Virus record (IMG/VR): IMGVR_UViG_3300006802_000775
Location: 1-20,482 of that record
Reading direction: 5' to 3' (one strand)
DNA: 20,482 nt
From: a virus
Shown here piece after piece: positions 1-20,482 of the stretch. The position numbers were made by a program, and so were the translations under genes. The notes under the pieces were generated by a model that searched no databases, was not told the origin of the DNA, and worked only from the letters and a program-made list of their open reading frames with translations. Numbering within the stretch: position 1 is the first letter of the stretch; every line of letters starts with the position of its first letter.

Positions 1-257
1 CGATTACGGGCATCGGCTTTGATGACGATAGCCTTGCCCACTAGAAAAACCCCCCAATACTCAAACAGCACAGGGTTAGGGTCTTGGTCTTTGAGCAGTC
101 CTTCCTCATCGACTAGCGCAAGGTCACCGTTAGGCAATTCCGTGCGTTCAACGTAGCCGCCGATAAAGTCCTGCGCTTCAGACAGCGTGGGTTGATGGTC
201 ACCCTTGTTGATGACCTTCACCCATTTGTTTAGATACAGTTGTGCCTGCGCGTTCAT
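1..257 (-). CDS. DUF3846-like phage protein (partial, C-terminus outside window)
   Basis: Reading leftward from the ATG at 257, the frame is open to base 1 (85 codons), so the C-terminus is missing. The protein starts MNAQAQLYLNKWVKV. It then shows GGYVERTELPNGD (about residues 33-45) and LVDEEGLLKDQDPNPV (about 48-63), followed by a hydrophobic end with VGKAIVI. The sequence of a GYVE segment, an acidic DEEG turn, an N/P motif and a final hydrophobic strand resembles the DUF3846 family of small phage and plasmid proteins, whose role is unknown. The start overlaps the stop of the upstream gene by ATGA, and a GGGGGAA Shine-Dalgarno precedes it. It is the last visible gene of the leftward operon. 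The family match is from memory of the pattern and was not searched. Confidence 0.7.
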   Translation of the reverse strand, partial: MNAQAQLYLNKWVKVINKGDHQPTLSEAQDFIGGYVERTELPNGDLALVDEEGLLKDQDPNPVLFEYWGVFLVGKAIVIKADARN

Positions 258-499
258 GCTAATTCCCCCATCAGTTGAAGCAGTGCAAAAGTTGACTGCG
301 GTTTGATTTCGGCACGGTCAAAGTCACTGCCCAAATACTTGCGGATGTGCTTTGATGTTGTAACCGACCACTTGCGGTCAGTGCGGATGGGGTCACCATC
401 CACATAAGCCGCCACAGGTGTTTCGTAAGAGAACAGAACACGTGCGCCATTGGTCAGCGTGATTTCTGTCATGTTTGATGCGATTTGTTTCAATTCCAT
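254..499 (-). CDS. Small conserved phage protein, DUF8033-like
   Basis: An 81-residue protein starting MELKQIASNMTEITLTNG. Its core is NGARVLFSYETPVAAYVDG (about residues 17-35) followed by RTDRKWSVTTSKHIRKYL (about 39-56). I associate this combination of a VLFSYETPVA strand with a later WSxTTSKHI motif with DUF8033, a small domain of phage and plasmid early genes with no known function. A Shine-Dalgarno AAAGGGG lies 8 nt before the ATG. The stop overlaps the ATG of the DUF3846-like gene, so the two are probably translationally coupled. The family name is an inference from the motif; the coding call is firm. Confidence 0.75.
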   Translation of the reverse strand: MELKQIASNMTEITLTNGARVLFSYETPVAAYVDGDPIRTDRKWSVTTSKHIRKYLGSDFDRAEIKPQSTFALLQLMGELA

Positions 500-501
500 G
501 A

Positions 502-699
502 TTAACCCCTTTCAGCGAACAGCACGAAAGCACAGCCGCTAAGACATAAGATAAAACCCAAGCCCATCACCATCAGCATTTCGCCAATGGTGTTAGCCTG
601 TTCCATACAATGACCGTCACAGTCATTGGCACTGCCGCCAATAGCAAGCAGTCCAACGATGATGCAGGTCAAGCCGAAGTATTTGAAAACCGTCTTCAT
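502..699 (-). CDS. Small two-helix membrane protein, unknown function
   Basis: A 65-residue protein with two clear hydrophobic segments: about residues 8-24 (FGLTCIIVGLLAIGGSA) and about 41-61 (LMVMGLGFILCLSGCAFVLF). They are joined by a polar loop holding DCDGHC. A charged N-terminus (MKTVFKY) and a short C-terminal AERG suggest a helical hairpin in the inner membrane with both ends on one side. The ATG overlaps the stop of the upstream gene (ATGA) and is preceded by GAGG. It sits within the early-type leftward operon. A lysis or superinfection role is possible, but nothing in the sequence decides this; it has no recognisable holin or spanin signature. Confidence 0.65.
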   Translation of the reverse strand: MKTVFKYFGLTCIIVGLLAIGGSANDCDGHCMEQANTIGEMLMVMGLGFILCLSGCAFVLFAERG

Positions 700-929
700 G
701 CTAGAACCTCACTCATTTTGTTGTGGATACCGTTTTTGATAAGTGACAATTCCACGCGGTCAACGACATCAAGCGATGTGCCTAGGTCACGCAGGACAGC
801 GCGAACACACGCGCCAACGTCAGATGACCCGATGCCTTGGTCTTTGTCCCAATCACCGAAGAACCATTCCACGTTGTCAGTGATGACATCAAGCACGTGG
901 TCTACGTTGTGTTGCTTAAATATGCTCAT
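696..929 (-). CDS. Hypothetical 77-residue protein, first gene of leftward operon
   Basis: I place the start at the ATG at 929 (MSIFKQHNVDHVLDVITDN). It has a good Shine-Dalgarno (AAAGGAAT) and lies downstream of a predicted promoter. The longer frame beginning at 995 would start inside that promoter, upstream of the predicted transcription start. The protein is soluble and acidic, with an aromatic patch EWFFGDWDKD near residues 22-31 and a helical C-terminal half (VVDRVELSLIKNGIHNKMSEVL). I do not recognise a family. Its stop overlaps the start of the membrane protein gene by ATGA, so the four leftward genes read as one transcript. Confidence 0.6.
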   Translation of the reverse strand: MSIFKQHNVDHVLDVITDNVEWFFGDWDKDQGIGSSDVGACVRAVLRDLGTSLDVVDRVELSLIKNGIHNKMSEVLA

Positions 930-942
930 TTCTATTCCTTTC

Positions 943-975
943 GCAGTTAGCATCAAGTCGATGCAGTTAACATCA
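943..975. repeat. Two direct 13-bp repeats over the leftward promoter
   Basis: GCAGTTAGCATCA (943-955) and GCAGTTAACATCA (963-975) match at 12 of 13 positions and are offset by 20 bp, close to two helical turns. The second copy overlaps the leftward -10 box and the first lies just past the predicted start, the usual place for repressor binding. An additional GCATC/GATGC inverted pair lies between them. An operator role is inferred from position and spacing. Confidence 0.5.
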
Positions 976-999
976 TAGCACATTTCAAAATACACGCAA
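965..999 (-). promoter_or_regulatory. Predicted leftward sigma70-like promoter
   Basis: On the minus strand TTGCGT (999-994), a 16-bp spacer and TATGAT (977-972) form a good sigma70-type promoter. A TGC just before the -10 adds an extended -10 element. The expected start is near 965, which leaves a leader of about 36 nt with the Shine-Dalgarno AAAGGAAT before the ATG at 929. Confidence 0.55.
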
Positions 1000-1020: not shown

Positions 1021-1055
1021 TTGACTTATCCCTACTTTAGGTTAAAATGTTGATA
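1021..1055 (+). promoter_or_regulatory. Predicted rightward promoter of the small terminase gene
   Basis: TTGACT (1021-1026), a 16-bp spacer and TAAAAT (1043-1048) resemble a sigma70 promoter, preceded by a very AT-rich stretch (about 1001-1020) that could act as an UP element. The expected start falls on or next to the ATG at 1055, so the transcript would have little or no leader. The spacer holds an inverted repeat CCTA-CTT-TAGG (1031-1041), which may be a regulator site related to those at 1860-1912. Confidence 0.5.
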
Positions 1056-1492
1056 TGGCTTCTAAAACCCTTACAGATAAACAGAAAGCGTTCGTCCTGC
1101 ACTTTAGTCAGACGGGTAACGCAACACAGTCTGCAATCGCGGCGGGATACAGTCCTGCGACAGCGGAACAACAGGGCTATGAACTCAAGAACAAGTTAGT
1201 GAATGAGATAGACGAAGCCACTAGGCAGATGCTAGGCAGTAGCGTCCCACTAGCAGTAGAGAAACTGCGTAGCCTGATGACTGATGACAAGGTATCGCCT
1301 GCCGTCCGTCTTGGGGCAATCAACAGCGTCCTTGACCGAACAGGCTATCAGACAGTCCACAAGGTAGAGGATGTCACCAAGCAACGTAGTGACGAAGAAC
1401 TAGAAGCAGAACTAAACCACCTGCTAGGTTCAATGGGCATCAGCCGCGCATCTATCGGCGGCGGTCTTGAAGAAGAAGACACCAAACACTAA
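1055..1492 (+). CDS. terS: Terminase small subunit (Terminase_2 type)
   Basis: A 145-residue DNA-recognition subunit of the packaging motor. The N-terminal part has the family's helix-turn-helix pattern: LTDKQKAFVLHF (about residues 6-17), then TGNATQSAIAAGYS (about 20-33) and a following helix ending YELKNKLVNEI. A helical middle (about 60-95) with AVRLGAINSVLDRTGY fits the oligomerisation region. The tail is acidic (SDEELEAELNHLLG, then GGGLEEED). The length fits the family. No Shine-Dalgarno is seen before the ATG (AAAATGTTGAT), while the -10 box ends only 6 nt upstream, so leaderless translation is likely. The gene is separated from the nuclease and large terminase by a long non-coding stretch, which is unusual since terS and terL are often adjacent. 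Confidence 0.9.
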   Translation: MASKTLTDKQKAFVLHFSQTGNATQSAIAAGYSPATAEQQGYELKNKLVNEIDEATRQMLGSSVPLAVEKLRSLMTDDKVSPAVRLGAINSVLDRTGYQTVHKVEDVTKQRSDEELEAELNHLLGSMGISRASIGGGLEEEDTKH

Positions 1493-1912: not shown

Positions 1913-1934
1913 GTATGGGGGTATGATGGGTGTA
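1899..1934 (+). promoter_or_regulatory. Predicted promoter of the nuclease-terL operon
   Basis: TTGCCC (1899-1904), a 17-bp spacer and TATGAT (1922-1927) form a moderate sigma70-like promoter. The -10 ends 6 nt before the ATG at 1934, the same geometry as at the small terminase gene. The -35 lies within the second palindromic repeat, so a bound regulator would block or alter polymerase binding. Confidence 0.45.
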
Positions 1935-2221
1935 TGGGTGATAAAGCATGGAAACAACGGGAAAGACAGGTTGCCGCCTACTTTGGGGGGGAACGCACAC
2001 CGTTGTCAGGGGGTAACGGCAAGATAACCCGTGCCGATGTGGTGCATGATGACCTGTTTATAGAGGTTAAACTGCGCCAAAAGCACAGTGTGGTCACCTT
2101 ATGGGATGCAACCAAGGAACTAGCGGACAAAGAAGACAAAACACCTGTCATCTGTCTTGCTGAAAAGAACCGCAAGGGTTTTTGGATAATGGTTCATAGC
2201 GATGATTTGGCGAAATTATGA
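1934..2221 (+). CDS. PDDEXK nuclease, Holliday-junction-resolvase-like
   Basis: A 95-residue protein with the compact layout of small PDDEXK nucleases. RERQVAAYFGGERTPLSGG (about residues 9-27) is followed by an active-site D in RADVVHD (D35) and by the E-x-K motif in FIEVKLR (E44, K46). A helix with WDATKELADKE and a final strand GFWIMVHSDDL complete the fold. This arrangement is that of Holliday-junction resolvases and related phage endonucleases that cut branched DNA. It overlaps terL by 4 bp (ATGA at 2218-2221). This suggests a linked role in resolving replicated concatemers or cutting genome ends for packaging, which is inferred from position. No clear Shine-Dalgarno precedes the ATG; a leaderless transcript is possible. 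Confidence 0.8.
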   Translation: MGDKAWKQRERQVAAYFGGERTPLSGGNGKITRADVVHDDLFIEVKLRQKHSVVTLWDATKELADKEDKTPVICLAEKNRKGFWIMVHSDDLAKL

Positions 2222-3636
2222 GCAGTGCATTAGCAAAAGCGGTGGAAATTGCAAAAGAATTAGAATTCCGCAAAGCAACTAACCGTATGGCGCACTATGC
2301 GCCCTATGACTATCAGGTCAAATTCCACAATACACAGGCACAACAGCGGCTACTGATGGCGGGTAACCGTATCGGCAAGTCTTTCTGTGGGGCTATGGAA
2401 ATGGCTTACCATCTGACGGGTCAATACCCTGATTGGTGGGAAGGCAAAAAATTTGAACGCCCTATACGGGCGTGGGCAGGGGGTGCATCTAACGAAACTA
2501 CCCGTGACATCTGCCAAAAAGAACTGGTTGGACAGCCTGATGACCCTACGGCTAAAGGAACGGGGTCTATTCCACTAAAATACATTGGGGAAACGGTGCG
2601 TAAAGCGGGTGTGCCTAATGCTATGAACAGTCTTGTTGTTAAGCACAAGACAGGCGGGTGGTCACGCCTAGCGTTTAAGGCGTATGAAATGGGCAAGGAA
2701 AAATGGATGGGTGAATCACTAGACGTGATTTGGCTAGACGAAGAACCGCCACAATCAATCTACACACAAGCGTTAACCCGAACCGCTGACAAAGGCGGTA
2801 TTGTCTATATGACCTTTACACCTGAAAACGGCATGACCGAAACAGTCGCGCAGTTTGTGAATGACCTACGCGCAGGACAGGCATTGATACAAGCAGGGTG
2901 GGATGATGCCCCGCATATGACAGCCGAAGTGCGTGAACAGATACTTTCGGCACTGCCACCCCATGAAAGAAAGATGCGTGAGCAAGGCATACCGCAACTA
3001 GGTTCAGGTCTTGTCTTTCCGCTACCTGAAGACCAAATGGTGTGCGAACCGATTGAAATACCTGCGCATTGGGCAAGAATGGCGGGTATCGACTTTGGTT
3101 GGAATCACCCAACAGCAGGGGCTTGGATTGCTTGGGATAGAGATAGTGACTGTATTTATGTCTACGATACATACGCTATGCGTCAAGAAGCAGTGCCTAT
3201 TCACGCAAGTGCGTTTAAGGCTAGGGGTAATTGGATTCCTGTTATTTATCCGATGGACGGAAGGCAAGCCGATAAGGGTTCAGGTAAGTCACTTGCAGAA
3301 CAATATCGCAATGAGGGAGTGAACCTAACACGTGAACACTTCACAAACCCACCACAAAAGGGAATGAAGGAAGGAACGGGCGGTATATCAGTAGAAGCAG
3401 GTATACAAGAAATGTATACACGCTTTACAACTAACAGATTGAAAATTTTTAGTAATCAAGGTAAACTATTAGAAGAACTGAGAATGTATCATCGTAATGA
3501 CGGTAAAATTGTTGCCGCCAATGATGACATTATCAGTGCTTTGCGTTATGCAGTTATGTCAGTAAGGAAGGCACGGGTTAAGGATTACGAACCTACGCAA
3601 ATGTTTTCCGATAATGACTTTAACGTATTCGCTTAA
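2218..3636 (+). CDS. terL: Terminase large subunit
   Basis: A 472-residue packaging motor that couples ATP hydrolysis to DNA translocation and cuts the concatemer. The ATPase half shows Walker A GNRIGKS (residues 49-55), an adenine-binding-like YAPYDYQVKFH just before it (27-37), and Walker B VIWLDEE (170-176) with catalytic E175 or E176. A TFTP motif near residue 200 fits the coupling motif. The RNase H-like nuclease half shows AGIDFGW (D292), YPMDG (D347) and NDDIISALRY (D436/D437), the expected acidic metal-binding triad. The length is normal for the family. It is translated from an ATGA overlap with the nuclease gene, so coupling is expected. All key residues are present. Confidence 0.95.
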   Translation: MSSALAKAVEIAKELEFRKATNRMAHYAPYDYQVKFHNTQAQQRLLMAGNRIGKSFCGAMEMAYHLTGQYPDWWEGKKFERPIRAWAGGASNETTRDICQKELVGQPDDPTAKGTGSIPLKYIGETVRKAGVPNAMNSLVVKHKTGGWSRLAFKAYEMGKEKWMGESLDVIWLDEEPPQSIYTQALTRTADKGGIVYMTFTPENGMTETVAQFVNDLRAGQALIQAGWDDAPHMTAEVREQILSALPPHERKMREQGIPQLGSGLVFPLPEDQMVCEPIEIPAHWARMAGIDFGWNHPTAGAWIAWDRDSDCIYVYDTYAMRQEAVPIHASAFKARGNWIPVIYPMDGRQADKGSGKSLAEQYRNEGVNLTREHFTNPPQKGMKEGTGGISVEAGIQEMYTRFTTNRLKIFSNQGKLLEELRMYHRNDGKIVAANDDIISALRYAVMSVRKARVKDYEPTQMFSDNDFNVFA

Positions 3637-3651
3637 TGAAAGGGGCAAAAC

Positions 3652-3924
3652 ATGGGTGCAGTTAAAAAATTATTCAAAGCAGTGGCGAAAGTCATTGCAC
3701 CTACGCCAAAAGTTACCGCACCTACTGTAGCAAAAGCGGCTGTTGAAAAAGCACAGACGGCTAAAGCGGCAGTAGCAAAAGGTGTAACAGGCGGTTCACT
3801 GTATGGTGGTTCAACCATTATGAGTGGCGCAGGTGGCGTAGAGGAAGAAGCAAACGTAGCAAAGACGGTGCTTGGCGGGACAAAGAAAAAAGTCAAGAAC
3901 CTGATGGGCGAAGGTGGCGCATAA
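3652..3924 (+). CDS. Small basic phage protein with GVEEEA/KTVLGG motif (paralog 1)
   Basis: A 90-residue protein with a Lys/Ala-rich N-terminal half (MGAVKKLFKAVAKVIAP and repeats of AxKAAVxKA) that is probably helical and could bind DNA or a membrane. The C-terminal half has GGSTIMSGAGGVEEEANVAK (about residues 54-73) and then TVLGGTKKK. The GVEEEAxxAKTxLGGT motif recurs in the 70-residue protein at 4360-4572. I recall small proteins ending in a KTLLG-like motif near the portal gene of many podoviruses, thought to be structural, but the role is not established. It starts after a strong AAAGGGG Shine-Dalgarno, 15 bp after terL. Confidence 0.8.
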   Translation: MGAVKKLFKAVAKVIAPTPKVTAPTVAKAAVEKAQTAKAAVAKGVTGGSLYGGSTIMSGAGGVEEEANVAKTVLGGTKKKVKNLMGEGGA

Positions 3925-3940
3925 CGGATAAGGTGGCATC

Positions 3941-4369
3941 ATGGTTGAAGTCAGGGTGGATAGGGCGATTTATGACAAAGCCTATGAATACCTTCAGCCA
4001 AGGGCGCACATCCTTAGACCGCTTGAACACGAAGACCGTGTTATTGCGTTTACAAAAGATGATGAAGTCGTTGGTGCATTGCTGTTTAGCGACTATGATG
4101 GGAACAACATCATGGTGCATTTAGCGTTAGATGACCCAAAGATTGCGTCAAGGCGCAACATTAAATTGATGTTTGATTATGCGTTTAACCAGTGTAAATG
4201 TAATAGGATGACAGGAATTTGTGTAGATGGATACGAGCGCAATGAACGGTTACTAGCAGGTGTCGGCTTTAAAAAAGAAGGCATCATAAGAAATATAATG
4301 AATGTGGATGGCACTTGTGTTGACGGTGCAATCTACGGAATTTTGAAAGGGGAATGTAAATGGGTATGA
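3941..4369 (+). CDS. GNAT-family N-acetyltransferase
   Basis: A 142-residue protein with the GNAT layout. An N-terminal helix and strand are followed by strands with VIAFTKDDEVVGALLFSDYD (about residues 34-53). Next comes the acetyl-CoA-binding helix region SRRNIKLMFDYAFNQC (about 69-84). The hallmark C-terminal part VGFKKEGIIRN (about 108-118) is followed by an aromatic-rich end, ILKGECKWV. Many podoviruses carry such an acetyltransferase between terL and portal; its target is unknown, but a virion or host protein is likely. It would transfer acetyl groups from acetyl-CoA. The Shine-Dalgarno AAGGTGG precedes the start. The C-terminus overlaps the next gene by 10 bp. The Q/RxxGxG/A loop is degenerate, which is common in phage members. 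Confidence 0.85.
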   Translation: MVEVRVDRAIYDKAYEYLQPRAHILRPLEHEDRVIAFTKDDEVVGALLFSDYDGNNIMVHLALDDPKIASRRNIKLMFDYAFNQCKCNRMTGICVDGYERNERLLAGVGFKKEGIIRNIMNVDGTCVDGAIYGILKGECKWV

Positions 4370-4572
4370 AATCCGCACCACAGATGCCGCCCCCTGTTGA
4401 CACTTCTGTTATAGACGAAACCAAGAAGAAGGAAGCCGCGCTAAAAGCAGAAAAAGATAAAATGCTTAGTGTCAATAAGCAGGGTAAATACGGCACTATC
4501 CTAACATCAGGTCTTGGTGTTGAGGAAGAAGCATCTACGGCAAAGACCATGCTTGGTGGAACGGTGGTGTAA
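4360..4572 (+). CDS. Small phage protein with GVEEEA/KTMLGG motif (paralog 2)
   Basis: A 70-residue protein: MGMKSAPQMPPPVDTSVI, a charged helix (DETKKKEAALKAEKDKML), then YGTILTSGLGVEEEASTAKT (about residues 47-66) and a terminal MLGGTVV. The last 25 residues clearly repeat the end of the protein at 3652-3924, while the N-terminal parts differ. It begins within the end of the acetyltransferase gene, with AAAGGGG 8-9 nt before the ATG; a second in-frame ATG at 4366 is possible. It ends one base before the portal start. The KTMLGG end resembles short structural proteins near portal genes in podoviruses, an association recalled but not checked. Confidence 0.8.
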   Translation: MGMKSAPQMPPPVDTSVIDETKKKEAALKAEKDKMLSVNKQGKYGTILTSGLGVEEEASTAKTMLGGTVV

Positions 4573-4573
4573 C

Positions 4574-6253
4574 ATGGCAGAATCCTACGCATCACCATAC
4601 GAATATATTAAAAAACGCCAATCCTATTTGGCATCACAGCGTGGAACGTGGGAAGACCATTGGCAAGAAATTCTTGACTATGTTATGCCGCGAAAAGCGG
4701 ACATTACGTTTGTTCGTTCAAGAGGTGAAAAGCGGTCAGAAAAACTGTTTGATAGCACTGCAATCACTGCAAATACCCTACTAGCCGCATCACTACAAGG
4801 CACACTGACATCCCCATCACTGCCTTGGTTCAGCCTTAAACTGCGCGATAAAGCCTTAAACGAAAATCGTGACGTTAAGATTTGGCTAGAAGACACTGCA
4901 CGTAGAATGTATGACACATTCAGCGACAGCAATTTCAATACCGAAGTCCACGAAATGTATTTAGACCTGACCAGTATTGGCACAGGTTGTCTTTTTGTTG
5001 AGGAAGGTAAAGGTGGCTTTGCTGAAAGCAGTATCCACTTCAATACACTTCACATAAGTGAATTTTACATAGCCGAAAACATTAACGGGTATGTAGATAC
5101 GGTGTATAGACGCTACAAAATGAACGCCCGTCAAGCCATGCAAGAGTTTGGTGAAGACAATATTGGCGAAAAAATTAAAGAAGCAGTCGAGCAAAAGCCT
5201 GATAAAGAATTTACGTTTATCCATGCGGTAGAACCGTCTGAAGATTACAAACGTGCAACAGGCAAAGTCGCTACAAAACTGAAATACCATTCATGTCACA
5301 TCTGCGAAGAAGACAAAATGGTAGTCAGGACAGGCGGCTACAACGAATTTCCTTATCTTGTTCCTAGATGGTCAAAGGCTACAGGCGAAATGTATGGACG
5401 TTCACCGTCCTACAATGCGTTGCCTGACATCAAGACCATCAACAAGGCTGTAGAGATTGGTCTGAAGGCGTGGGCAAAGGCTATTGACCCACCACTACTT
5501 GTGACCGATGACGGCGTTATAGGGCGCGTTAGAACTACGCCTGCGGGTATTACCGTGGTTCGTAGCGAAAACGCTATCAGACCGCTTCAAATCGGCAGTA
5601 ATTGGCAAATTACAGACCTAAAAGAAACGCAGTTACGCACAGCAATTCGTCAGGCTTACTATTCTGACCAACTGCAACTGCAAGAAGGTCCACAGATGAC
5701 CGCAACAGAAGTGCAGGTTCGTTACGAATTGATGCAACGGTTGCTTGGTCCAACCCTAGGACGTTTCCAATCAGAATTTTTGAACCCGCTTATTGAGCGT
5801 GTGTTTGGAATTATGATGAGAGCAGGCGTTTTACTACCGCCGCCACGTCAAATGGAAAAAGGTGGGCAGATGGATGTCGAGTATGTTGGACCGTTGGCGC
5901 GGTCACAGCGTATGGAAGAAGCACAAGCCATTGACCGTCTGTATCAACTAGCCATGAACATTGGTCAGATTGACCCAAGTATCATGGACAACATAGACCA
6001 CGATGAAGCCATTCGTATGAGGGCTAAATTGTTGGGTGTGCCTGCTACTGTAATGCGTGACCCACGTGAAGTTATGGCAGGACGACAAGCACAGCAACAA
6101 ATGGCGGCGCAACAGCAAGCAATGATGGCGGCGCAACAGCAATCACAAGTGGCTAAGACGCAGGCAGAAGCCGCAAACCTTATGGGCAAGGGCGAAACCC
6201 AAGCCGTAATGCAACAGGCTACTGCTGAAGCAGAAAGGCAAATGACAGAATAA
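4574..6253 (+). CDS. Portal (head-to-tail connecting) protein
   Basis: A 559-residue portal of the podovirus head-to-tail connector type (PF12236-like). It forms the ring at one capsid vertex through which DNA is packed and ejected, and onto which the tail is built. The N-terminus (SPYEYIKKRQSYLASQRG then WEDHWQEILDYVMPRK) and the following LFDSTAITANTLLAASLQG and SPSLPWFSL segments are typical of the family. The core has the PYLVPRWSK and YGRSPSYNALPDIKTIN regions (about residues 258-300). The C-terminus is Gln/Ala-rich (AQQQMAAQQQAMMAAQQQ), likely a helical barrel. I choose the ATG at 4574 because the upstream alternative at 4514 would overlap the whole end of the preceding gene and add residues unlike the family. 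Confidence 0.93.
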   Translation: MAESYASPYEYIKKRQSYLASQRGTWEDHWQEILDYVMPRKADITFVRSRGEKRSEKLFDSTAITANTLLAASLQGTLTSPSLPWFSLKLRDKALNENRDVKIWLEDTARRMYDTFSDSNFNTEVHEMYLDLTSIGTGCLFVEEGKGGFAESSIHFNTLHISEFYIAENINGYVDTVYRRYKMNARQAMQEFGEDNIGEKIKEAVEQKPDKEFTFIHAVEPSEDYKRATGKVATKLKYHSCHICEEDKMVVRTGGYNEFPYLVPRWSKATGEMYGRSPSYNALPDIKTINKAVEIGLKAWAKAIDPPLLVTDDGVIGRVRTTPAGITVVRSENAIRPLQIGSNWQITDLKETQLRTAIRQAYYSDQLQLQEGPQMTATEVQVRYELMQRLLGPTLGRFQSEFLNPLIERVFGIMMRAGVLLPPPRQMEKGGQMDVEYVGPLARSQRMEEAQAIDRLYQLAMNIGQIDPSIMDNIDHDEAIRMRAKLLGVPATVMRDPREVMAGRQAQQQMAAQQQAMMAAQQQSQVAKTQAEAANLMGKGETQAVMQQATAEAERQMTE

Positions 6254-6474: not shown

Positions 6475-6477
6475 ACT

Positions 6478-8335: not shown

Positions 8336-8348
8336 GGGGGAGTAGAAA

Positions 8349-8813: not shown

Positions 8814-8820
8814 AAGGGCT

Positions 8821-12367: not shown

Positions 12368-12369
12368 TC

Positions 12370-14232
12370 ATGGCTATTAAATTATCAAGATACGCAGGCA
12401 GTCTAGGAAGCGCACCACTACAAAGTGGACGAACTATTACTACGGGCGTTACCGAAGGTGGATTGCAAGACCTTGGTAAAGGAATTATGGATATTGCCAA
12501 AATGTATGGCGAAGCAAGTATCCGTAGGGAAGCCAAACTGCGTGACCTTGACCTAGTTTCTAAAAACGAAAACGGTAAGAACGAAAGCCTGCTTCACAAT
12601 GATAATTTTACTTTTGACATAGAAACGTCAGGTAGAACCGATTGGCAGTCTTGGGAAGATGAATTTAAGACCAGTTATCAAACAAATGTAACTGACAAAA
12701 AACTCAATGGCGATTTCAAAGACGATGAAGTCGCATGGAAAAAACATGAGCCGTTCAATGACCTAGGTTACATTGAAGGGCTACGTGCTATCCGCACATT
12801 GGCAAAAAATCAGCGTCTTAAAAATGCGCAACGTGCGTATGACCAGTCATGGGTAAGCACCCAAGGTAGCATCGACAAAGCAACGTCAGCCGAAGAAGTA
12901 AAAAGTATTTACGACACATGGGCGACAGGCACGTTAGGTAACTACGCTAAGACTGAATTTATTACGGGTGAACGCTATAAGTCTGACAATGAAGGCATGG
13001 CGGCATATGCAAACAATGCCTATATGTTTCATCAGGTCAGCAAAGGTGTTGCACCATTACAAGCACCTAATGGTAGCGGGGCAATAAATTGGGCTGAACT
13101 AGCCAACAAAGCCGCAGACCCTACTTACAAAATGCAGGACATTCAAGGTAATGAACTTACCGTTGATGACCCAATCCGCAAAGGTCTTATTAAACATTAC
13201 CGTGAAAAAGACGGTGAACAAGACACGTTCTTTGAGCGTGAACGTAATGACCGTCAACGCGAATCAAAAGGTTTTTTTACTGACCGAATCATCAGAATGT
13301 CTACAGGTAAGCCTGATGCTGACTTCCTAGGTGATTTGCAAAAAGACCAAAGTCTTGAGCCTGAAACCAAGTTAGCCCTAAGAAATTCTTACTTTACTAC
13401 TGTCGGTAACTTGAAAGACAAAACAAAACCGTGGGAAACACAGCAAGGCATTGCCGCAGAAGGTATGTTGCGTGTTTTGGTTTCTGCGGGTGTGATTGAT
13501 ACGCAAGAAGAAAAAGGCATTATCCGCGATATGTGGCTAAACGGGCAGTTAATCAGTCCTGAAACCGTTTCTACGCTTGATAAACTTGTTGACGAAAAAA
13601 TTGCACAAAGCAATAAGCCTAACCAAGTGCTTTATAAACGCACAGTAGGCACGATTATGAAAGAAATGGGCGAAAAACAAAGCCCAATAGCCGCGTTATC
13701 AAGTCTTGATGCAGGTGCAGGTTCACTTAAAAGCCTGTCTGATGTTCAAAATCTGATTGATTCAATGTCAGGTCAGATGTCTAAAGAAGCATTGTTGGCT
13801 ATTCAAAACCTAGATTACATGATTGCTGAAGGTCAACGTAAAGGGTTTACTGTCCAAAATATGTTGGGCAACCCAAGTAGTCCAAACTATATCGTTAACG
13901 ATGTTATCAAGGTATATAAAGAACTGAAGTCAGAATCAGACTTAACTAAGTTTAATACTTCAGCGCAAAACTATCTCAACGCAAATTGGTATACAGACGG
14001 CAAGTTTGGTATTGATGCGGCGGCTTGGGCGGCAAGTCCATTGCGTTCTGCACCTGTTGTTAAGAATGTTCCATTGCGCAGGGAAGGCGAAACTATAACG
14101 GATTACTTGCCTAGATTAGATAAGTGGATGCAAGAAAACAAAATGTCTAACAATTCAATGCTACCAATGTTTATGTATGGTGACCAACCAAATGTAGGCG
14201 GGGCGGGTATGAACATTATTGGAACTGAATGA
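12370..14232 (+). CDS. Putative internal virion protein in the gp15 position
   Basis: A 620-residue soluble, mostly helical protein that starts two bases after the gp14-like gene. It begins with a small-residue stretch (SRYAGSLGSAPLQSGRTITT, then GGLQDLGKGIMDIAKMYGEA, about residues 6-48) and continues as long charged helices. Visible blocks include LGYIEGLRAIRTLAKNQRL (about 133-151), FFERERNDRQRESKGFF (about 288-304) and a helical C-terminal region with DYLPRLDKWMQ. I do not recognise a catalytic motif. Order and size match T7 gp15, the periplasmic-tunnel protein ejected with gp14 and gp16, so a similar role is likely but not shown by sequence motif. The stop overlaps the start of the next gene. 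Confidence 0.7.
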   Translation: MAIKLSRYAGSLGSAPLQSGRTITTGVTEGGLQDLGKGIMDIAKMYGEASIRREAKLRDLDLVSKNENGKNESLLHNDNFTFDIETSGRTDWQSWEDEFKTSYQTNVTDKKLNGDFKDDEVAWKKHEPFNDLGYIEGLRAIRTLAKNQRLKNAQRAYDQSWVSTQGSIDKATSAEEVKSIYDTWATGTLGNYAKTEFITGERYKSDNEGMAAYANNAYMFHQVSKGVAPLQAPNGSGAINWAELANKAADPTYKMQDIQGNELTVDDPIRKGLIKHYREKDGEQDTFFERERNDRQRESKGFFTDRIIRMSTGKPDADFLGDLQKDQSLEPETKLALRNSYFTTVGNLKDKTKPWETQQGIAAEGMLRVLVSAGVIDTQEEKGIIRDMWLNGQLISPETVSTLDKLVDEKIAQSNKPNQVLYKRTVGTIMKEMGEKQSPIAALSSLDAGAGSLKSLSDVQNLIDSMSGQMSKEALLAIQNLDYMIAEGQRKGFTVQNMLGNPSSPNYIVNDVIKVYKELKSESDLTKFNTSAQNYLNANWYTDGKFGIDAAAWAASPLRSAPVVKNVPLRREGETITDYLPRLDKWMQENKMSNNSMLPMFMYGDQPNVGGAGMNIIGTE

Positions 14233-17200
14233 TGAATAGTTTAACGGTCACACAACTTAGACAGGCAGGGTTTTCTGATGAACACATCATTAACTTTACC
14301 AATTCTAAAAGACCGTTCCTAAAAGGCGCAGGTTTTTCTGACAGCGAAATCAATGACCATTTTGGTATTGCGCAATCGTCATGGGATATGTTTGCCAAGT
14401 CACAGGTAGTCGGTCAAGACCGTAGCCTAATTGTTGATACAGACGGTGACCAACTATCTGTTAAACCAAAAGACGAAAACGCAACACTTGCAGAAGTCGC
14501 GGCGAAACAGGACAACAATCTTGTTACTAAAGACAATCAGGTTGTAAAGCCTGACGGGGTAACACAGCCTGACACTGTTTCGGCTGATGGACAGCCTGTG
14601 GCTGATACACAGGGCAAAGATTTGATGCGCCCTGAAAACGTCAATCAGCCTACGTTTAACACCAACCTAGCGACAAGCATTGCCGAAGCAGAAAAAAACA
14701 AACCACCAGTTTATAAATGGGAAGATTTAACTGACGTTCAAAAAAGACAACTTAAAATGGGCGGTTCGTTTTGGACTGAAGACGCAAGTGGTAAAACGGG
14801 CGGTAGCGGCAAAAGAATCAGCAGTAAGGACGTTTTGTATCCAAACAAGGAATACACACAGCGTGAAGAAGAAGCGCGTGAAGAACGATTTTCTGTTCTA
14901 AATACTTTAGTTAGTAGTGGTCCATCTACTTTACGTCTACTAGACGGCATACAAAAGACCAATGGGTTTACTGACTTTCAGATAGATACCATTAACGAAG
15001 CATTGTCGTTTGTTTCGGCTATTGAGAGTGACAACAAAAACATTCTCAACGAAATGGGCAATAAGGGCGGCGTGTTTCAGATACGTCAAGACGAAATGGT
15101 TTCATTGATAAACCGTTACGTTAACCTGTCTAAACAGTTTGACCCATCATTTGTTAAGCCTGATTGGGTAGACAAAGCACTAGAAGATAAACGTGCTACA
15201 TCGTTGCCATTGGATGCACAACGTGCGCTGATGCTAACTAAGATGTTTACCATTACACAGCCTGCTTATGCAGACGGTAATTATTCCACAACAGGTAATT
15301 TTCAGTTTAGTGAACTAAGCGATACTGAACGAGCAGAACTTCAACAAATTCGCGTTGACGTAGGTGAAAGCGTAAAAGCAGTAGTCGAAGGTGTTGGCGA
15401 CAGAAATGCACTTCTACAACAAATAGAAGCCAAAAAAGCCGAAATTGAACTTGTTACGGCTAATCCTGCTATTACGATTGGCGAAATTCAAAGACAACAG
15501 GTTGAAATACTTAAACTAGACGAAGCACTAGCCCACCTTGAAAAACAATATGCCGCATTGCAACTGCGCTTAGATAAGCAAGCCAAACTAGCCTATGACG
15601 ATACAGATGCGGGGGCAGAAGCAGACTTTAACAATGCACCGCTAGAAGTGCGTCAGTCATTGTTTGAGTTAATTCGTAAGGACAAACGTGTGCCTGACGA
15701 AAACGCTATGTCTTTGCCTATGCGTATTGCCAAGGGTGACCCTGAAGCAATCAAAGAATTCTATTTGAAATACCACAACCCACCAAATCCTGACCAAGAT
15801 ACCCCTGCGCTTACAGAACGTGTAGACAAGTATCTAAGCAAGTGGAACACCGTGGACTACAAATACGAACTGCCGCAAATGGCAACGTGGTCACAAGACG
15901 GTTGGGTGACTGAATTTGCAAAAGACAGTTACGCAGGACGTAAGTTTATTAAGTATTCAGGTGGTGCAGGCGAACAGAACGTATTCGGCAACGGCATGAA
16001 TTTGTCGGTGTCAGGTCTAATGTCAGCCTATCACTATGAAGTCGGCGTAAACGGTAAAGACCCACGCAAGGCGTATGAAGAAATTTTCATGCACCAAAGT
16101 CAAGACGGAATGTTGGGCTTTTCGCAGGATGTTGCTAAGTCAATGTCGCAAATCCTAGGTGATACGCCGTGGATGGGTGTAGGTTGTGCCGCCGCTGTAG
16201 CACCCCCTGCGGTTGGTATGTTAACCCCTGCCGCACCCGCTGTTGCCCCAACATTGCCGTTCTTCTGTGCCGCAGGTGCATTTGCGTTGCCTGAATCAAT
16301 GCGTGATACCTACATTCGCGGCATTATGAATGGCGAAGTAAACAACTTTGACGAATTTCAAAAAGAATTTATGTCGGCACGAACTGCCGAAGTCGCAGGT
16401 AAATACGGCGTAGTCGGCGCAGTAACTATGGGCGCAGGTAAAGGTGTTCAGGCAATGGGTGGTGGCAGATTGCTACAACTTAGTGCAGAAGTGCCAACAA
16501 TGGTTACCTTGTCCGCAGTGCTAGAAGGACACGTTCCTACTAGACAAGACTTTGCCCATGCCGCTGTCTTGATGTTTGGTATTCATGGCGCAGTAAAAGG
16601 CACAAATGCACTGTATCAAATCTACAAGCGACATGGCGTTCACCCACGTGATGTAGTAACGCTAGCAGAAGCACGTGAAGATATTGCCGCAGATTTGGCT
16701 GAAGGTAGAGTGCCACGTTACTTCACTGAAGTAGGCGAAGCATTGCTTAATGCCGCAGAAGAAACTACAGGCACAAAACTAATACCGCCGCCAAAGGTTG
16801 AAGTAAACCAAACCGTTAAGACTAGCGTTGCAGGAACAGAAACAGGCAAGGTTGTCGGGCGTGAACAGGTAGATGGCGCAGAAGCCATTATCAGCATTGA
16901 AAAGCCAAATGGCGAAGTCATTAAGGTTGGCGAATCAAAAGTAGAGCCGTCAAACTCTGAACACATCACTGTTGAAATTACGCCTGAAGGTCAGGTTCGG
17001 TTTGGCGAAGTTAAAGAAACTAACTTTGAAGCCCGTAAAGCGGCAGGCGAATTTGATGCAGACGTTATTCTGCTTGACGAAATTGTAGTTAAAGCCCCCA
17101 AAGTCGATGTTGCTGTTGATACTGTGGTTAAGAAACAGGAACAGGCAGTCAAATGGGAATCAGACGATGCAGTCGGAACAGTAGACGTTTGGGTCAAGAA

Positions 17201-20200
17201 AGAAGTTTACCCTGAACTAACAGCCGAATTTAAGAACAAAGACGTAGGCAGGGTATCTTACGAAGGCAAAGAAGCGTCTGCAAAAATTAAGTCTGACATA
17301 ATTGGTAGGGTTGAAGAAACCACCAAAGTAGACGTTGTTTACGGTATTGAAAAAGGCGGTCCAAGTGGAATGACCGAAGCATCTACTGTGGTTCGTGCCG
17401 CAGATGGATATTACGTTGTTCCACGTGAAATGTTTGAAGCACTGCGTAAATACACTGACCCTTTGACCAAAGAGGTAAAAGACGCAGATGTTGGCTTTAG
17501 CGAAGGTAATATTGTCTTTATTGCTAAAGATAGCGTAACTGGCAAAACGTCACTGATTGGCAGTCTTCACGCTAAAAAGGCTGAAGGCAAGGTAGAAGCA
17601 CAGGCATCGTCTTACTACACAACCCACATGGACAGCACAGGAAAAACGTGGTCTAGGGAAAATTCTACTAAAGGCGGTAGTCAGCGTAAGATACCTGATG
17701 AACCTAATCAGCCACCACCATTTAACGGCGAACTGAATTGGAAGGGTCTGTTTGAATACGGACGTGGCTTAGACACGTTTGACCTTGTAGAACTTACCCG
17801 CGCATTGATTGACCATACCCCGTTCCTAGAAAACCTGAAGGAAGGCTATTACGGCTATTTCCAATACGGTGGAATTAAGGGTGGTAAAGTCAGACAGTTT
17901 ACTAAGGAAGAACTGAAGGTAGTGGTAAACCGCGCCCTACAGGAAAATCCAAAGCAATTCATTATGACCTTGGCGCATGAGATTGGTCACTTGATTGACT
18001 ATCTGCCACAGGAAACAATGAACAAAGGTAACATCCTTGGTTCACTAGCCGCTATCAAAGACTACCTAAACAAATGGATTGATGGACGTGCAGACGGCGC
18101 GAAACCATTAACCAAGGTAGAAATTGAAGCCTTGCGCAAAGAAGCAGAAGCAGAAGCACTAGCCAAAGAACCTGTGATAGATGCAGAAATCACAGGTGAA
18201 CTAGCGATTACGCCTAAGAAAATCCTAGATATTTGGAAAGACCCTGACATCAGAAGCAAGATTGACCCTGAATTCTATTCGGTCATCCAAGGTCTTAGCA
18301 ATGCGCTGAAGAAGCAGGTAACACGTAGTGCGATGAAGGGCATGATTGACCCGCACATCAAAGCAATCGTGGACAAAATCAATGGCAAGAAAAACATTGA
18401 CCCTGATGTTCTCAAAAAAGCAGAGGACATTCTTGCGGCGAAGGTTGAGAAAGAAATTAAAGAACGTGGTCTTGTTTCTAGGGAAGAAATAATGGCTGAA
18501 TTGAAGGCTTTGACGCAAGAGTGGAAGCCATTCGATGATGCCGCCAACCCTAACTTTACTGCGTATCGTTACAGCCCACGTGAATTGATGGCTGACTTTA
18601 TGATGGCGTTTATGCTACGTCCACAGTGGACTAAAGTTAATGCGCCAAAAGCGTTTGAAGTGTTGATGAACCACTTCCACAAACGCCCTGAAGTCATGCA
18701 GGAATTCCTAAAGATACAAAACGCATTGAACGCAGGCGGCGACAAAATGTTTGCGCCTATTCATACCGCAACAATGGAAATGATGCGGTCAGGTTCAGAG
18801 CGTGTTGGCAAGAAAATGATTGAGGATGCCGAAACAGGACCATCTGTTCGTGATGCGGTAGAAACTGAATTCATTGACATATTTGGTTGGTTCTACAGAC
18901 GCTTTGGTGGACCGAATGGATTTTTTGGTTCTGACAGGGCGGCACGTTGGTTCAATGAAGCCACAATGTATTTTGGCGGCATGATTGAGAAATTCCGCTA
19001 TCGCCATGCTTATATGCAGTCATACCAAAAGGCGATGATGCGCGAAGTGTTTGAACCGCTAAACAAGTCAGGCAAAAGCCATGACGTATTAGGCACGATG
19101 CTACTGTATCGAAACCTAGCGTTTAGTATTCAGCGTGGCGGCAAAGCAAACCCATTAGGTTTGTGGTCACAAATGAAAGAAGCCGTTCAGAAAGATGCTG
19201 AAGGCAACCCTGAACTTGTCAGGATTGTTACCGAAATCGAAGGTGGACGTGACGCAAAGTCTATTTACGAAAACTTTGCCAAACTACACCCTGACGTTGA
19301 TGCGCTAGCCACAAAGTTTTTTGAAATCCGCGCTGAATATATGCACCCTGTCTTAAAAGACAGCATGATGTTTGATGCCGAAACATTACAAAAGATGTTG
19401 GACAACAACGAATACATCACGTTTAGCGTCAGCAAATGGGTAGAAAAGAAGATTGGTAAATATGGCAACAAGGCGTTTATGTCTGCACACATTAAGCGGA
19501 CTGAAGGCACATTGGCAGACATTCTGAACCCACTACACACTACGTTAGAAAAAGACTTCATGCTGTTAACGGCATTGAAGAAAAACCGCCTAATTATTGA
19601 AGCCGTCAAATGGATGCAAGACAACAAGTCTTGGATGGAAACATTTGATATGAACACAAAACTTGGTGGTTCAAAGAAAGATGTGGTGATTGAAAAAGCC
19701 AAGTCGATTGGTAAGGGCGTTTATGAGCCACCGCCAAAAGGTATGCACCAAATTATGTTGATGCGTAACGGCAAGGTAGAAATGTGGAACATGAATAAGT
19801 TTGCCGCTGATGCGTTCTTAGATAACCCTTATCGTTGGATTATGGGAACAAGCATATTAGCGTCTACTAATGCTTGGTATCGCGGCATATTTACTGAATA
19901 TAACCCATTGTTTTGGGGTAAGAATATGTTCAAGGATACAGGACGTGCGGTTCGTAACCTTGAAAACGCCCGTTACTTTGACATTTTGAAGGGCGGTAAA
20001 AACAGTTACGTTAAGTATCTAATCAAATCTATTCGTCCAACATGGAAATCTATCTTTGGCGATGGCACAAACCTAACCAACTTGATGGAAAAGGAAGGCT
20101 ATTTGATTTCGGCAATGGAAGGATACCGTGGTCAAGCAGGTGAACTAGCCATTAGACGTATGGTTAAAGACGGCACATTGACAGCAGATAATGTGATTGT

Positions 20201-20482
20201 CGAAAAACTGTTGCAGAAATTAGACCCCAAAAAGTATGAAACTTTCTACAGCAATACGATGGGTAGGATGTTGGAATACGTTGGGAACATTGCGCGTGTT
20301 TTAGAGCGTATGCACAAAGTCGCAGGTAAGATGTATTTAGATGACGCTGTTAAACGCGGCGAACTAAAGATGTCCGATATGGAAATCTTACAGCGTGTTC
20401 AGGCTGACGTTGGTTCACCATCATTCCTACGCACAGCGCGTATGCACCCTATTATGAACAACGTATTCCTTTTCTCAAACGC
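14229..20482 (+). CDS. Giant polyvalent ejection protein: transglycosylase, metallopeptidase and LPD38-like regions (partial, C-terminus outside window)
   Basis: I translated this frame to the window edge without a stop: at least 2084 residues. The start is ATGATG at 14229/14232, overlapping the previous stop. Residues about 230-310 form a lytic-transglycosylase-like domain: catalytic E266 in FVSAIESDN and, 18 residues on, Q284 in GGVFQI. A helical region follows. An Ala/Pro-rich hydrophobic stretch lies at about 649-688, then LPESMRDTYIRGIMNGE. Repetitive beta-type sequence spans about 850-1060. A zinc metallopeptidase motif AHEIGHLIDYLP (H1250, E1251, H1254) has the likely third ligand E1452 in RELMADF. 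The last 220 residues (PLFWGKNMFKDTGRAV, then GSPSFL and NVFLFSN) resemble LPD38 of large polyvalent phage proteins. The place matches T7 gp16, which enters the host and opens peptidoglycan. Confidence 0.88.
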   Translation, partial: MMNSLTVTQLRQAGFSDEHIINFTNSKRPFLKGAGFSDSEINDHFGIAQSSWDMFAKSQVVGQDRSLIVDTDGDQLSVKPKDENATLAEVAAKQDNNLVTKDNQVVKPDGVTQPDTVSADGQPVADTQGKDLMRPENVNQPTFNTNLATSIAEAEKNKPPVYKWEDLTDVQKRQLKMGGSFWTEDASGKTGGSGKRISSKDVLYPNKEYTQREEEAREERFSVLNTLVSSGPSTLRLLDGIQKTNGFTDFQIDTINEALSFVSAIESDNKNILNEMGNKGGVFQIRQDEMVSLINRYVNLSKQFDPSFVKPDWVDKALEDKRATSLPLDAQRALMLTKMFTITQPAYADGNYSTTGNFQFSELSDTERAELQQIRVDVGESVKAVVEGVGDRNALLQQIEAKKAEIELVTANPAITIGEIQRQQVEILKLDEALAHLEKQYAALQLRLDKQAKLAYDDTDAGAEADFNNAPLEVRQSLFELIRKDKRVPDENAMSLPMRIAKGDPEAIKEFYLKYHNPPNPDQDTPALTERVDKYLSKWNTVDYKYELPQMATWSQDGWVTEFAKDSYAGRKFIKYSGGAGEQNVFGNGMNLSVSGLMSAYHYEVGVNGKDPRKAYEEIFMHQSQDGMLGFSQDVAKSMSQILGDTPWMGVGCAAAVAPPAVGMLTPAAPAVAPTLPFFCAAGAFALPESMRDTYIRGIMNGEVNNFDEFQKEFMSARTAEVAGKYGVVGAVTMGAGKGVQAMGGGRLLQLSAEVPTMVTLSAVLEGHVPTRQDFAHAAVLMFGIHGAVKGTNALYQIYKRHGVHPRDVVTLAEAREDIAADLAEGRVPRYFTEVGEALLNAAEETTGTKLIPPPKVEVNQTVKTSVAGTETGKVVGREQVDGAEAIISIEKPNGEVIKVGESKVEPSNSEHITVEITPEGQVRFGEVKETNFEARKAAGEFDADVILLDEIVVKAPKVDVAVDTVVKKQEQAVKWESDDAVGTVDVWVKKEVYPELTAEFKNKDVGRVSYEGKEASAKIKSDIIGRVEETTKVDVVYGIEKGGPSGMTEASTVVRAADGYYVVPREMFEALRKYTDPLTKEVKDADVGFSEGNIVFIAKDSVTGKTSLIGSLHAKKAEGKVEAQASSYYTTHMDSTGKTWSRENSTKGGSQRKIPDEPNQPPPFNGELNWKGLFEYGRGLDTFDLVELTRALIDHTPFLENLKEGYYGYFQYGGIKGGKVRQFTKEELKVVVNRALQENPKQFIMTLAHEIGHLIDYLPQETMNKGNILGSLAAIKDYLNKWIDGRADGAKPLTKVEIEALRKEAEAEALAKEPVIDAEITGELAITPKKILDIWKDPDIRSKIDPEFYSVIQGLSNALKKQVTRSAMKGMIDPHIKAIVDKINGKKNIDPDVLKKAEDILAAKVEKEIKERGLVSREEIMAELKALTQEWKPFDDAANPNFTAYRYSPRELMADFMMAFMLRPQWTKVNAPKAFEVLMNHFHKRPEVMQEFLKIQNALNAGGDKMFAPIHTATMEMMRSGSERVGKKMIEDAETGPSVRDAVETEFIDIFGWFYRRFGGPNGFFGSDRAARWFNEATMYFGGMIEKFRYRHAYMQSYQKAMMREVFEPLNKSGKSHDVLGTMLLYRNLAFSIQRGGKANPLGLWSQMKEAVQKDAEGNPELVRIVTEIEGGRDAKSIYENFAKLHPDVDALATKFFEIRAEYMHPVLKDSMMFDAETLQKMLDNNEYITFSVSKWVEKKIGKYGNKAFMSAHIKRTEGTLADILNPLHTTLEKDFMLLTALKKNRLIIEAVKWMQDNKSWMETFDMNTKLGGSKKDVVIEKAKSIGKGVYEPPPKGMHQIMLMRNGKVEMWNMNKFAADAFLDNPYRWIMGTSILASTNAWYRGIFTEYNPLFWGKNMFKDTGRAVRNLENARYFDILKGGKNSYVKYLIKSIRPTWKSIFGDGTNLTNLMEKEGYLISAMEGYRGQAGELAIRRMVKDGTLTADNVIVEKLLQKLDPKKYETFYSNTMGRMLEYVGNIARVLERMHKVAGKMYLDDAVKRGELKMSDMEILQRVQADVGSPSFLRTARMHPIMNNVFLFSN

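What the first reader, a model, noticed from the sequence alone, without database searches (positions are those of the whole stretch)
1..20482. Five tetranucleotide palindromes seem to be absent from the whole window
Line-by-line reading found no GATC, GGCC, AGCT, CCGG or GTAC anywhere; about 80 of each would be expected in random sequence of equal base composition. I also noticed no CCWGG. Other palindromes such as CTAG, AATT, TTAA, CATG, TGCA, TCGA, ACGT, GCGC and CGCG are present, so this is selective rather than a general effect of composition. Selective loss of several 4-bp sites is a known phage response to type II restriction. Full loss of five or six at once suggests a long history in hosts with several such systems, and no self-protecting methyltransferase is seen in this part of the genome.
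Basis: seen in the sequence. Interest (0 to 1): 0.75.

Follow-up and report, generated by a model that had tools for sequence, protein, structure and literature searches.

The report
Phage fragment lacking many restriction sites
This piece of a marine-type phage genome has lost five four-letter and most six-letter palindromic words of the kind that bacterial cutting enzymes recognise, and in related phages new copies of such words are still being removed, so the genome reads like a record of the enzymes it meets.

Summary
Confirmed, and larger than reported. GATC, GGCC, AGCT, CCGG and GTAC each occur 0 times (Markov expectation 54, 60, 45, 42, 70). CCNGG, GCWGC and GGNNCC are also absent, as are 47 of 64 six-base palindromes (300 codon-preserving simulations: mean 4, maximum 10). 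The effect is on or off for each word: 21 of 37 testable hexamer palindromes are absent while others sit near or above expectation; only 18 of 1588 non-palindromic hexamer pairs are absent. GCWGC is 0 but GCSGC is 90, which is enzyme-like resolution. Related phages eliminate different sets (14 patterns, one empty, among 69 loci). In three of six relative pairs tested, substitutions creating words eliminated in a third phage are 3-6% of expectation against 68-80% for control palindromes; the other three were uninformative or mixed. Isolated SAR11 phages show 3-5%, although published surveys report restriction systems in few SAR11 genomes. Best explanation: known restriction-site avoidance against Type II-like nucleases, at an extreme, with turnover. 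The window's host and the enzymes are unidentified. A phage-encoded agent was looked for and not supported.

The parts
1..20482 (.). Whole window: no GATC, GGCC, AGCT, CCGG, GTAC, CCNGG, GCWGC, GGNNCC, RGCGCY, GRCGYC, RCATGY, GDGCHC or CGACG; 47 of 64 hexamer palindromes absent
   Evidence: exact counts and codon-preserving nulls
2129..10110 (+). Stretch shared with L002 (99.65%, 28 differences), used as an independent test of the void
254..995 (-). Three small genes (254-499, 502-699, 696-995) left of the terminase genes; 254-499 matches phrog_5643 (unknown function), the other two matched no PHROG or Pfam family
1055..1492 (+). Terminase small subunit
   Evidence: phrog_51 E 4.7e-15
1934..2221 (+). 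Small protein with weak match to phage Holliday junction resolvases
   Evidence: phrog_2002 E 8.6e-8; no Pfam match
2218..3636 (+). Terminase large subunit, 77% identical to Pelagibacter phage Baldr
3941..4369 (+). Acetyltransferase-like protein
   Evidence: phrog_4470 E 9.6e-22; no Pfam match at 0.001
4562..6253 (+). Portal / head-tail adaptor
   Evidence: phrog_332 E 6.7e-164
6478..7296 (+). Capsid assembly / protease-like protein (best match is a family of unknown function, phrog_3742)
   Evidence: phrog_458 E 8.1e-21; homologue named capsid assembly protein in Baldr
7475..8335 (+). Major capsid protein
   Evidence: phrog_3437 E 5.7e-100
8862..9440 (+). Tail tubular protein A (tail protein family)
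   Evidence: phrog_394 E 4.6e-54; Baldr homologue named tail tubular protein A
9440..11908 (+). Tail tubular protein B (tail protein family)
   Evidence: phrog_376 E 1.8e-192; Baldr homologue so named
12370..14232 (+). Late protein shared by 14 of 24 genomes compared, without family match
14229..20480 (+). Very large late protein (at least 2084 aa, runs off the window), without family match

Best explanation
The void is the footprint of present-day selection by many separate sequence-specific nucleases of Type II restriction kind, encoded by the bacteria that this lytic-looking podovirus lineage infects. Any genome that gains a site by mutation or recombination is cut with some probability at entry and leaves fewer descendants, so each specificity that is common in the host pool drives its own word to zero. 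When hosts and enzymes change, words are purged anew or allowed to return, so related phages carry different sets of missing words. Shown here: the counts; the on/off, palindrome-centred, degenerate-base pattern; lineage-specific turnover; removal of new sites in relatives. Inferred: that the agent is host restriction, that cleavage at entry is the step selected, and that the window's own lineage is under the same live selection (tested only with 28 differences).
For: Five tetramers at 0. 47 of 64 hexamer palindromes absent against at most 10 in 300 simulations; 27 of 44 whose central tetramer is present are absent against at most 5; 21 of 37 testable absent against 18 of 1588 non-palindromic pairs; uniform thinning rejected (0 of 20,000 draws). 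Enzyme-like resolution: GCWGC 0 with GCSGC 90, mirrored in relative L270 (GCSGC 0 with 9 expected, GCWGC 47-48). Turnover: of 105 aligned AGCT of G015, 0 survive in G013 and 65 differ by one base, while the 13 other palindromes with at least 20 aligned copies survive at 22-48%; 14 patterns of elimination, one empty, among 69 loci. Live selection: substitutions creating words eliminated in an outgroup number 2 against 47 expected (controls 309/389), 1 against 32 (198/249) and 3 against 52 (651/953); in SAR11 isolates 5/159, 8/182 and 8/154 (controls 0.70-0.73). Elimination is known to concern mainly orthodox Type II sites of non-temperate phages (PMC6286503; parts 1, 3 and 4 of 5 read).
Against: No host and no enzyme was identified for the window; the MAG matches look like mis-binned phage contigs. 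For SAR11, host of the nearest isolate Baldr, published surveys report few restriction systems: one of more than 100 genomes (PMC7029224 passage) and 19 of 172 Ca. P. ubique genomes (PMC11066056 passage), yet SAR11 phages show the same purge. Some eliminated words are non-palindromic (GGAG, CGACG, GTCTC) or depleted trinucleotides (GAG), which do not look like simple palindromic sites. CCGG is eliminated in all 18 testable clade A loci and AGCT in 51 of 55 clade B loci, more constant than rapid host turnover would lead one to expect. In the other three pairs the contrast was weak or absent: G008/G009 had only 19 SNPs (1 against 1.9 expected; controls 3 against 6.4), and G018/G019 (0.30 against 0.60) and G008/G013 (0.21 against 0.59) used outgroups with partly different sets. 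G015/G016 and G015/G014 share a member, as do the SAR11 pairs, so they are not independent. In the reverse direction one L002/window difference does create a listed word (TTTAAA). Controls also lack many hexamer palindromes (T7 19 of 61, LUZ24 8 of 57), so the window differs in degree.
Confidence: 0.8

Rival explanations
1. Phage-encoded or co-infecting-phage-encoded site-specific endonucleases degrade host or rival DNA, and the phage protects itself by having no sites.
For: CCGG loss is nearly constant through clade A and AGCT loss through clade B, as expected of a clade-wide agent; SAR11 hosts are reported poor in restriction systems; the four contigs with the closest copies (52% identity or more) of an Endonuclease VII-like gene all have low GATC (1/23, 4/19, 2/26, 0/32), two of them being the records in which the gene was noticed.
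Against: Only 6 of 27 contigs carrying relatives of that gene have GATC eliminated, and an 81% identical copy coexists with 4 GATC (L225). In 113 accessory-protein representatives (of 158 listed; core families and some short frames dropped) no restriction endonuclease appears in the 25 families shown of 39 (Pfam), of 82 (PADLOC) or of 114 (PHROGs); the families not shown were not seen. Core nucleases look like recombination exonucleases and a Ref-like protein. One phage would need tens of such enzymes.
Confidence: 0.1
2. General avoidance of palindromes (for instance hairpins, dimeric DNA-binding proteins) rather than enzyme-specific loss.
For: The absent words are mostly palindromes; total hexamer palindromes 79 against 268 expected.
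Against: Some palindromes are at or above expectation (CACGTG 8/4.5, GTTAAC 9/5.1, TGCGCA 7/4.0; CCTAGG 9/2.4) while others are zero; uniform thinning gives 6.6 zeros against 21 seen, dispersion never reached in 20,000 draws. Relatives lack different palindromes.
Confidence: 0.02
3. Codon usage or base composition artefact.
For: GAG, CTC, TCC and CCC codons are rare in the window.
Against: Nulls that keep every protein and the phage's own codon usage still expect 33-69 of each tetramer and only about 4 absent hexamer palindromes; the 1,047 non-coding bases lack the five words too, although few would be expected there.
Confidence: 0.01
4. Sampling artefact: DNA digested before sequencing, or an assembly oddity.
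For: None found.
Against: A separately assembled contig L002 carries the same void; relatives from the same collection lack other words, and the more distant L130 (from a MAG) has no tetramer eliminated (57 CCGG, 49 GATC); cultured isolates show the same kind of pattern.
Confidence: 0.01

Closest known systems
Restriction-site avoidance in non-temperate dsDNA phages (Rusinov et al. 2018, PMC6286503; parts 1, 3, 4 of 5 read)
   Same: Elimination of orthodox Type II-like sites in a dsDNA phage without a visible modification gene; most eliminated words with known counterparts are palindromic Type II sites (counterparts recalled).
   Different: Here, by my estimate, about 20-25 or more specificities are gone at once, the set turns over between relatives, and removal of new sites is measured directly between relatives; the host enzymes are unknown.
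Phage T7
   Same: Podovirus with a similar late-gene order, eliminated GATC (5/124) and many missing hexamer palindromes (19 of 61 testable).
   Different: 3 of 55 tested specificities eliminated in T7 against 20 of 53 in the window (one motif appears twice in that list under two spellings).
Pelagibacter phage EXVC032P Baldr (OQ414636)
   Same: Same clade (terminase 77% identical); 17 of 44 tested specificities eliminated, CCGG and GCWGC among those shared.
   Different: Lacks ACGT, GCGC, TCGA and CTNAG, which the window has (TCGA and CTNAG at about half of expectation), and keeps GATC, GGCC, AGCT and GTAC.
GANTC depletion in about half of 33 pelagiphages (PMC9516812, section 12 and passages read)
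   Same: Motif loss in SAR11 phages that follows phage phylogeny.
   Different: One motif, discussed through a host methylation mark; here many motifs and a substitution-level test.

Membership tests
Restriction-site avoidance | Recognition words far below expectation (elimination: under 0.1 of expected) | tested here: met
   0 of five tetramers; 20 of 53 listed specificities eliminated
Restriction-site avoidance | Loss concentrated in palindromic, Type II-like words | tested here: met
   21 of 37 palindromic hexamers against 18 of 1588 non-palindromic pairs absent; GCWGC against GCSGC
Restriction-site avoidance | Selection, not mutation bias: new sites are removed | tested here: met
   met in relatives and SAR11 isolates: creation ratio 0.03-0.06 against 0.68-0.80 for controls in three of six pairs and all four tests; in the window itself only suggestive (4.7 expected, 0 in one direction, 1 in the other)
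Restriction-site avoidance | Host encodes enzymes of these specificities | not testable with these tools
   host unknown; only MAG contigs that look mis-binned were found
Restriction-site avoidance | No other anti-restriction device (modification, methyltransferase) | tested here: inconclusive
   none among the 19 called genes against PHROGs or ten against Pfam, but about half the genome is missing
Restriction-site avoidance | Non-temperate life style | tested here: inconclusive
   no integrase match in the half that is held
Phage-encoded self-avoiding nuclease | A phage nuclease gene co-occurs with loss of its word | tested here: not met
   one candidate tested, the Endonuclease VII-like gene: GATC eliminated in 6 of 27 carriers; other genes not tested

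The most novel reading that the evidence does not exclude
The words are being purged by nucleases that are not ordinary resident restriction-modification systems of the hosts: for example nucleases carried by rival phages, satellites or rare mobile islands, or an unrecognised defence in streamlined marine bacteria. SAR11 phages would then be a living read-out of tens of DNA-cutting enzymes in a host group thought almost free of them.
Probability: 0.15. Interest if true: 0.85.

Novelty: new member of a known kind. Interest (0 to 1): 0.6.

Why it matters
A phage genome that lacks tens of enzyme words, each on or off, can be read as a list of the DNA-cutting enzymes active in its hosts, without knowing or growing the host. 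Because relatives differ and, in those tested, new sites are still being removed, the list is current rather than ancient. The SAR11 case poses a sharp question: cultured SAR11 phages are under strong live selection against many words, while surveys report restriction systems in only a small share of SAR11 genomes. Either rare carriers dominate selection, or the cutting enzymes sit somewhere not yet looked at.

Tried and rejected
Host assignment through genome contigs: four loci came back, two clade A contigs in one Verrucomicrobia MAG and one distant contig each in a Gemmatimonadetes and an Actinomycetota MAG; I take them for mis-binned phage contigs. A cytosine-methylase search of two of those genomes gave 2 matches in one and 0 in the other and says nothing about the window's host.

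Finding the missing half of the window's genome by its word fingerprint: the best candidate, L264, has 7 GGCC, 26 AGCT and 18 GTAC and was rejected. Of the loci held, none matches the window at 90% or more except L002 and L001, the latter a part of the window.

Phage-encoded nuclease: families shared only by AGCT-less G008, G009 and G013 are a 109-118 aa acidic protein and an 82-89 aa reading frame that looks spurious, judged too weak. The Endonuclease VII-like gene did not hold up.

GAG and CCAG: all 14 residual CCAG are RCCAGT, so a longer or mixed specificity seems likely; the greedy motif search gave plausible words (CGASG, GAGNC, CTCRG) but they are not proven units.

Dropped rows: in the non-palindromic hexamer control, pairs containing any of the five tetramers, GCWGC, CCAG, GAG or CGACG were left out before counting. 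In one search, loci under 5 kb were left out (11 of 80 in clade A, 25 of 80 in clade B), and words with a Markov expectation under 7 in a locus were not testable, so short loci with no eliminated word may simply lack power.

Literature: nine answered searches. No listed title or abstract described tens of specificities eliminated in one phage or a substitution-level test, but only parts or passages of five papers were read (PMC6286503, PMC9516812, PMC9004378, PMC7029224, PMC11066056), so this is not a claim that nothing is in print.
Full report
What was checked. The window is a whole IMG/VR record of 20,482 bases. GATC, GGCC, AGCT, CCGG and GTAC occur 0 times; the maximal-order Markov model expects 54, 60, 45, 42 and 70. 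The void is even: no occurrence in any of five overlapping 4.5 kb slices or in the 1,047 non-coding bases, and the summed Markov expectation is about 270. A null that keeps every protein and the phage's own codon usage still expects 33-69 of each. That null is conservative, because the codon usage itself is already depleted.

Whole-window counts are also 0 for CCWGG, CCSGG, GCWGC, GGNNCC, RGCGCY, GRCGYC, RCATGY and GDGCHC (zero-order expectations 29, 24, 29, 54, 13, 13, 20, 32) and for CGACG (29). GCSGC, one degenerate base away from GCWGC, occurs 90 times against 24 expected. Of 64 hexamer palindromes 47 are absent; 300 simulations gave a mean of 4.0 and a maximum of 10. Of the 44 whose central tetramer is present, 27 are absent (simulations: mean 1.5, maximum 5). 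Of 37 of these with expectation of at least 3, 21 are absent. A uniform thinning of all palindromes would leave 6.6 absent, and none of 20,000 draws reached the observed dispersion. Of 1588 comparable non-palindromic hexamer pairs 18 are absent (2.2 expected). So the loss is palindrome-centred and switched on or off word by word, which points to discrete recognition specificities.

What the window is. Its genes are terminase small and large subunits, portal, major capsid, tail tubular A and B and large late proteins. The closest isolate terminase is that of Pelagibacter phage Baldr, 77% identical. Complete-looking relatives are about 36-39 kb, so about half the genome is missing. No methyltransferase or integrase matched among the 19 called genes against PHROGs or ten against Pfam.

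Relatives. 80 loci with terminase relatives were fetched (called clade A) and 80 of a sister group (called clade B). Using loci of at least 5 kb (69 and 55), CCGG is eliminated (at most 10% of expectation) in all 18 clade A loci where it is testable; over the 69 loci 4 are seen against 356 expected. CCGG does occur now and then: 5 in all 80 loci (L061, L074, L078) and 5 in G008 and its near-twin G009. Other words are lost in subsets: GATC 15 of 69, AGCT 9 of 69, TCGA 6 of 48, CGCG 4 of 33, and ACGT, CATG and GCGC 2 each; GGCC and GTAC are each eliminated in 1 locus, L002, which is the window's own phage. There are 14 patterns, the empty one (32 loci) included; part of the difference between loci reflects their length. 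Clade B loses AGCT in 51 of 55 loci and, among tetramers, otherwise only CGCG once; its longer records also lack 13-28 testable hexamer palindromes. Non-palindromic tetramers are eliminated in 5 of 8096 and 0 of 6600 cells. A more distant relative, L130 (7.9 kb), has no tetramer eliminated (57 CCGG against 51 expected, 49 GATC against 55). L270 mirrors the window: GCSGC 0 (9 expected), GCWGC 47-48.

Turnover. G013 and G015 are 76% identical. Of 105 AGCT of G015 that align to G013, 0 are kept and 65 differ by one base. The 13 other palindromes with at least 20 aligned copies are kept at 22-48%. In the other direction G015 has lost TCGA, which G013 retains (1 of 24 kept). Five CCGG of G008 sit within 570 bases (9629-10199), which looks like a recent import. 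In clade B, L160 (25 AGCT in 10 kb) is nested among AGCT-less relatives in the terminase tree, so words seem to return when selection stops.

Selection is current in relatives. L002 matches window 2129-10110 with 28 differences. Words were defined on the other 12.5 kb of the window. Inside the shared stretch they occur 3 times in the window and 2 in L002. Matched for base change and codon position, 4.7 of the 28 differences should create a listed word; 0 do in the direction window to L002 (probability about 0.005), 1 does in reverse (TTTAAA). Larger pairs were tested with words defined by an outgroup and expectations matched for base change only: G015/G016, 858 SNPs, 2 creations against 47 expected (control palindromes 309 against 389); G015/G014, 1 against 32 (198/249); G003/G011, 3 against 52 (651/953). 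Three further pairs were less clear: G008/G009 had too few SNPs (19; 1 against 1.9, controls 3 against 6.4), and G018/G019 and G008/G013, with outgroups whose sets differ in part, gave 0.30 and 0.21 against 0.60 and 0.59. Pairs that share a member are not independent.

Controls and hosts. With the same pipeline T7 has GATC eliminated and 19 of 61 testable hexamer palindromes absent, KIT05 19 of 56, LUZ24 8 of 57, HTVC010P 12 of 34, HTVC011P 16 of 35, HTVC019P 11 of 35, G013 28 of 50 and the window 31 of 47. So broad hexamer loss is common in podoviruses and the window is the far end of a range. Of a recalled list of specificities the window eliminates 20 of 53 testable, Baldr 17 of 44, HTVC019P 14 of 47, T7 3 of 55 and LUZ24 0 of 55 (GCAGC and GCWGC in that list are the same word, and RGATCY and GGSCC follow from GATC and GGCC). 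Ten SAR11 phage isolates were analysed. Eight are recorded on strain HTCC1062 and show six different sets of eliminated tetramers; GATC is eliminated in six of the eight and near expectation in Baldr and HTVC010P, ACGT is eliminated in Baldr alone (low, 4/30, in HTVC010P), and TCGA in three. The set is therefore not dictated by the laboratory host. In three pairs among HTVC019P, HTVC022P and HTVC131P, creations of words eliminated in HTVC201P are 5 against 159, 8 against 182 and 8 against 154 expected, while controls run at 0.70-0.73; with HTVC021P as the word source, HTVC019P/022P gives 12 against 225.

The puzzle. PMC7029224 (passage) states that one of more than 100 SAR11 genomes encodes a restriction-modification system; PMC11066056 (passage) finds putative systems, all restriction-modification, in 19 of 172 Ca. 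P. ubique genomes and none in 14 bloom MAGs. Strong live selection against many words in SAR11 phages therefore needs rare but effective carriers, other hosts, or another source of nucleases. The window's own host is unknown and need not be SAR11 (G+C 45%).

Phage-encoded agent. 113 of 158 listed protein representatives were scanned. Among the families shown (25 of 39 in Pfam, 25 of 82 in PADLOC, 25 of 114 in PHROGs) there was no restriction endonuclease; there was one clear cytosine methylase, in G023, and matches to MT-A70 and N6_N4_Mtase in members that I did not identify. Clade B core genes include an exonuclease, a Rad52/Erf-like annealing protein and weak PD-(D/E)XK matches. An Endonuclease VII-like gene seen in GATC-less G018 and G019 occurs in 27 contigs, of which 6 have GATC eliminated. 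This rival is not supported but not excluded, since such enzymes diverge fast.

Verdict. The mechanism is most likely ordinary Type II restriction pressure (known kind; PMC6286503), here at the extreme end of what I examined, with clear turnover and a direct demonstration in relatives that new sites are still being purged.

Noticed in passing
window 1-20482: GAG/CTC is depleted to 88 against about 575-592 expected; codon GAG 41 against GAA 422. GGAG is 3, and all 14 remaining CCAG are RCCAGT, which suggests unrecognised longer or mixed non-palindromic specificities.
   Followed up: partly
L270 1-15587: Relative with GCSGC, GCGC and CGCG at 0 but GCWGC at 48, the mirror image of the window.
   Followed up: partly
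L132-L211: Sister clade of podoviruses that has lost AGCT in 51 of 55 loci of 5 kb or more; L160, nested inside, carries 25.
   Followed up: partly
L085 9629-10199: Five CCGG clustered in 570 bases of an otherwise CCGG-free phage (G008), possibly a recently imported segment.
   Followed up: no
L099 4621-5529: C5 cytosine methylase gene in phage G023, which still lacks CCGG (0/16).
   Followed up: no
L117-L119 (G028): 60.6 kb contig that holds two sets of terminase and capsid-assembly genes, possibly two phages joined in assembly.
   Followed up: no
L128, L129: Two phage contigs of this clade sit in one public Verrucomicrobia MAG (TMED56), probably mis-binned.
   Followed up: no
L095 75-470: Endonuclease VII-like gene just left of the terminase genes in GATC-less phages G018 and G019; the four closest copies sit in contigs low in GATC, more distant ones mostly not.
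   Followed up: partly
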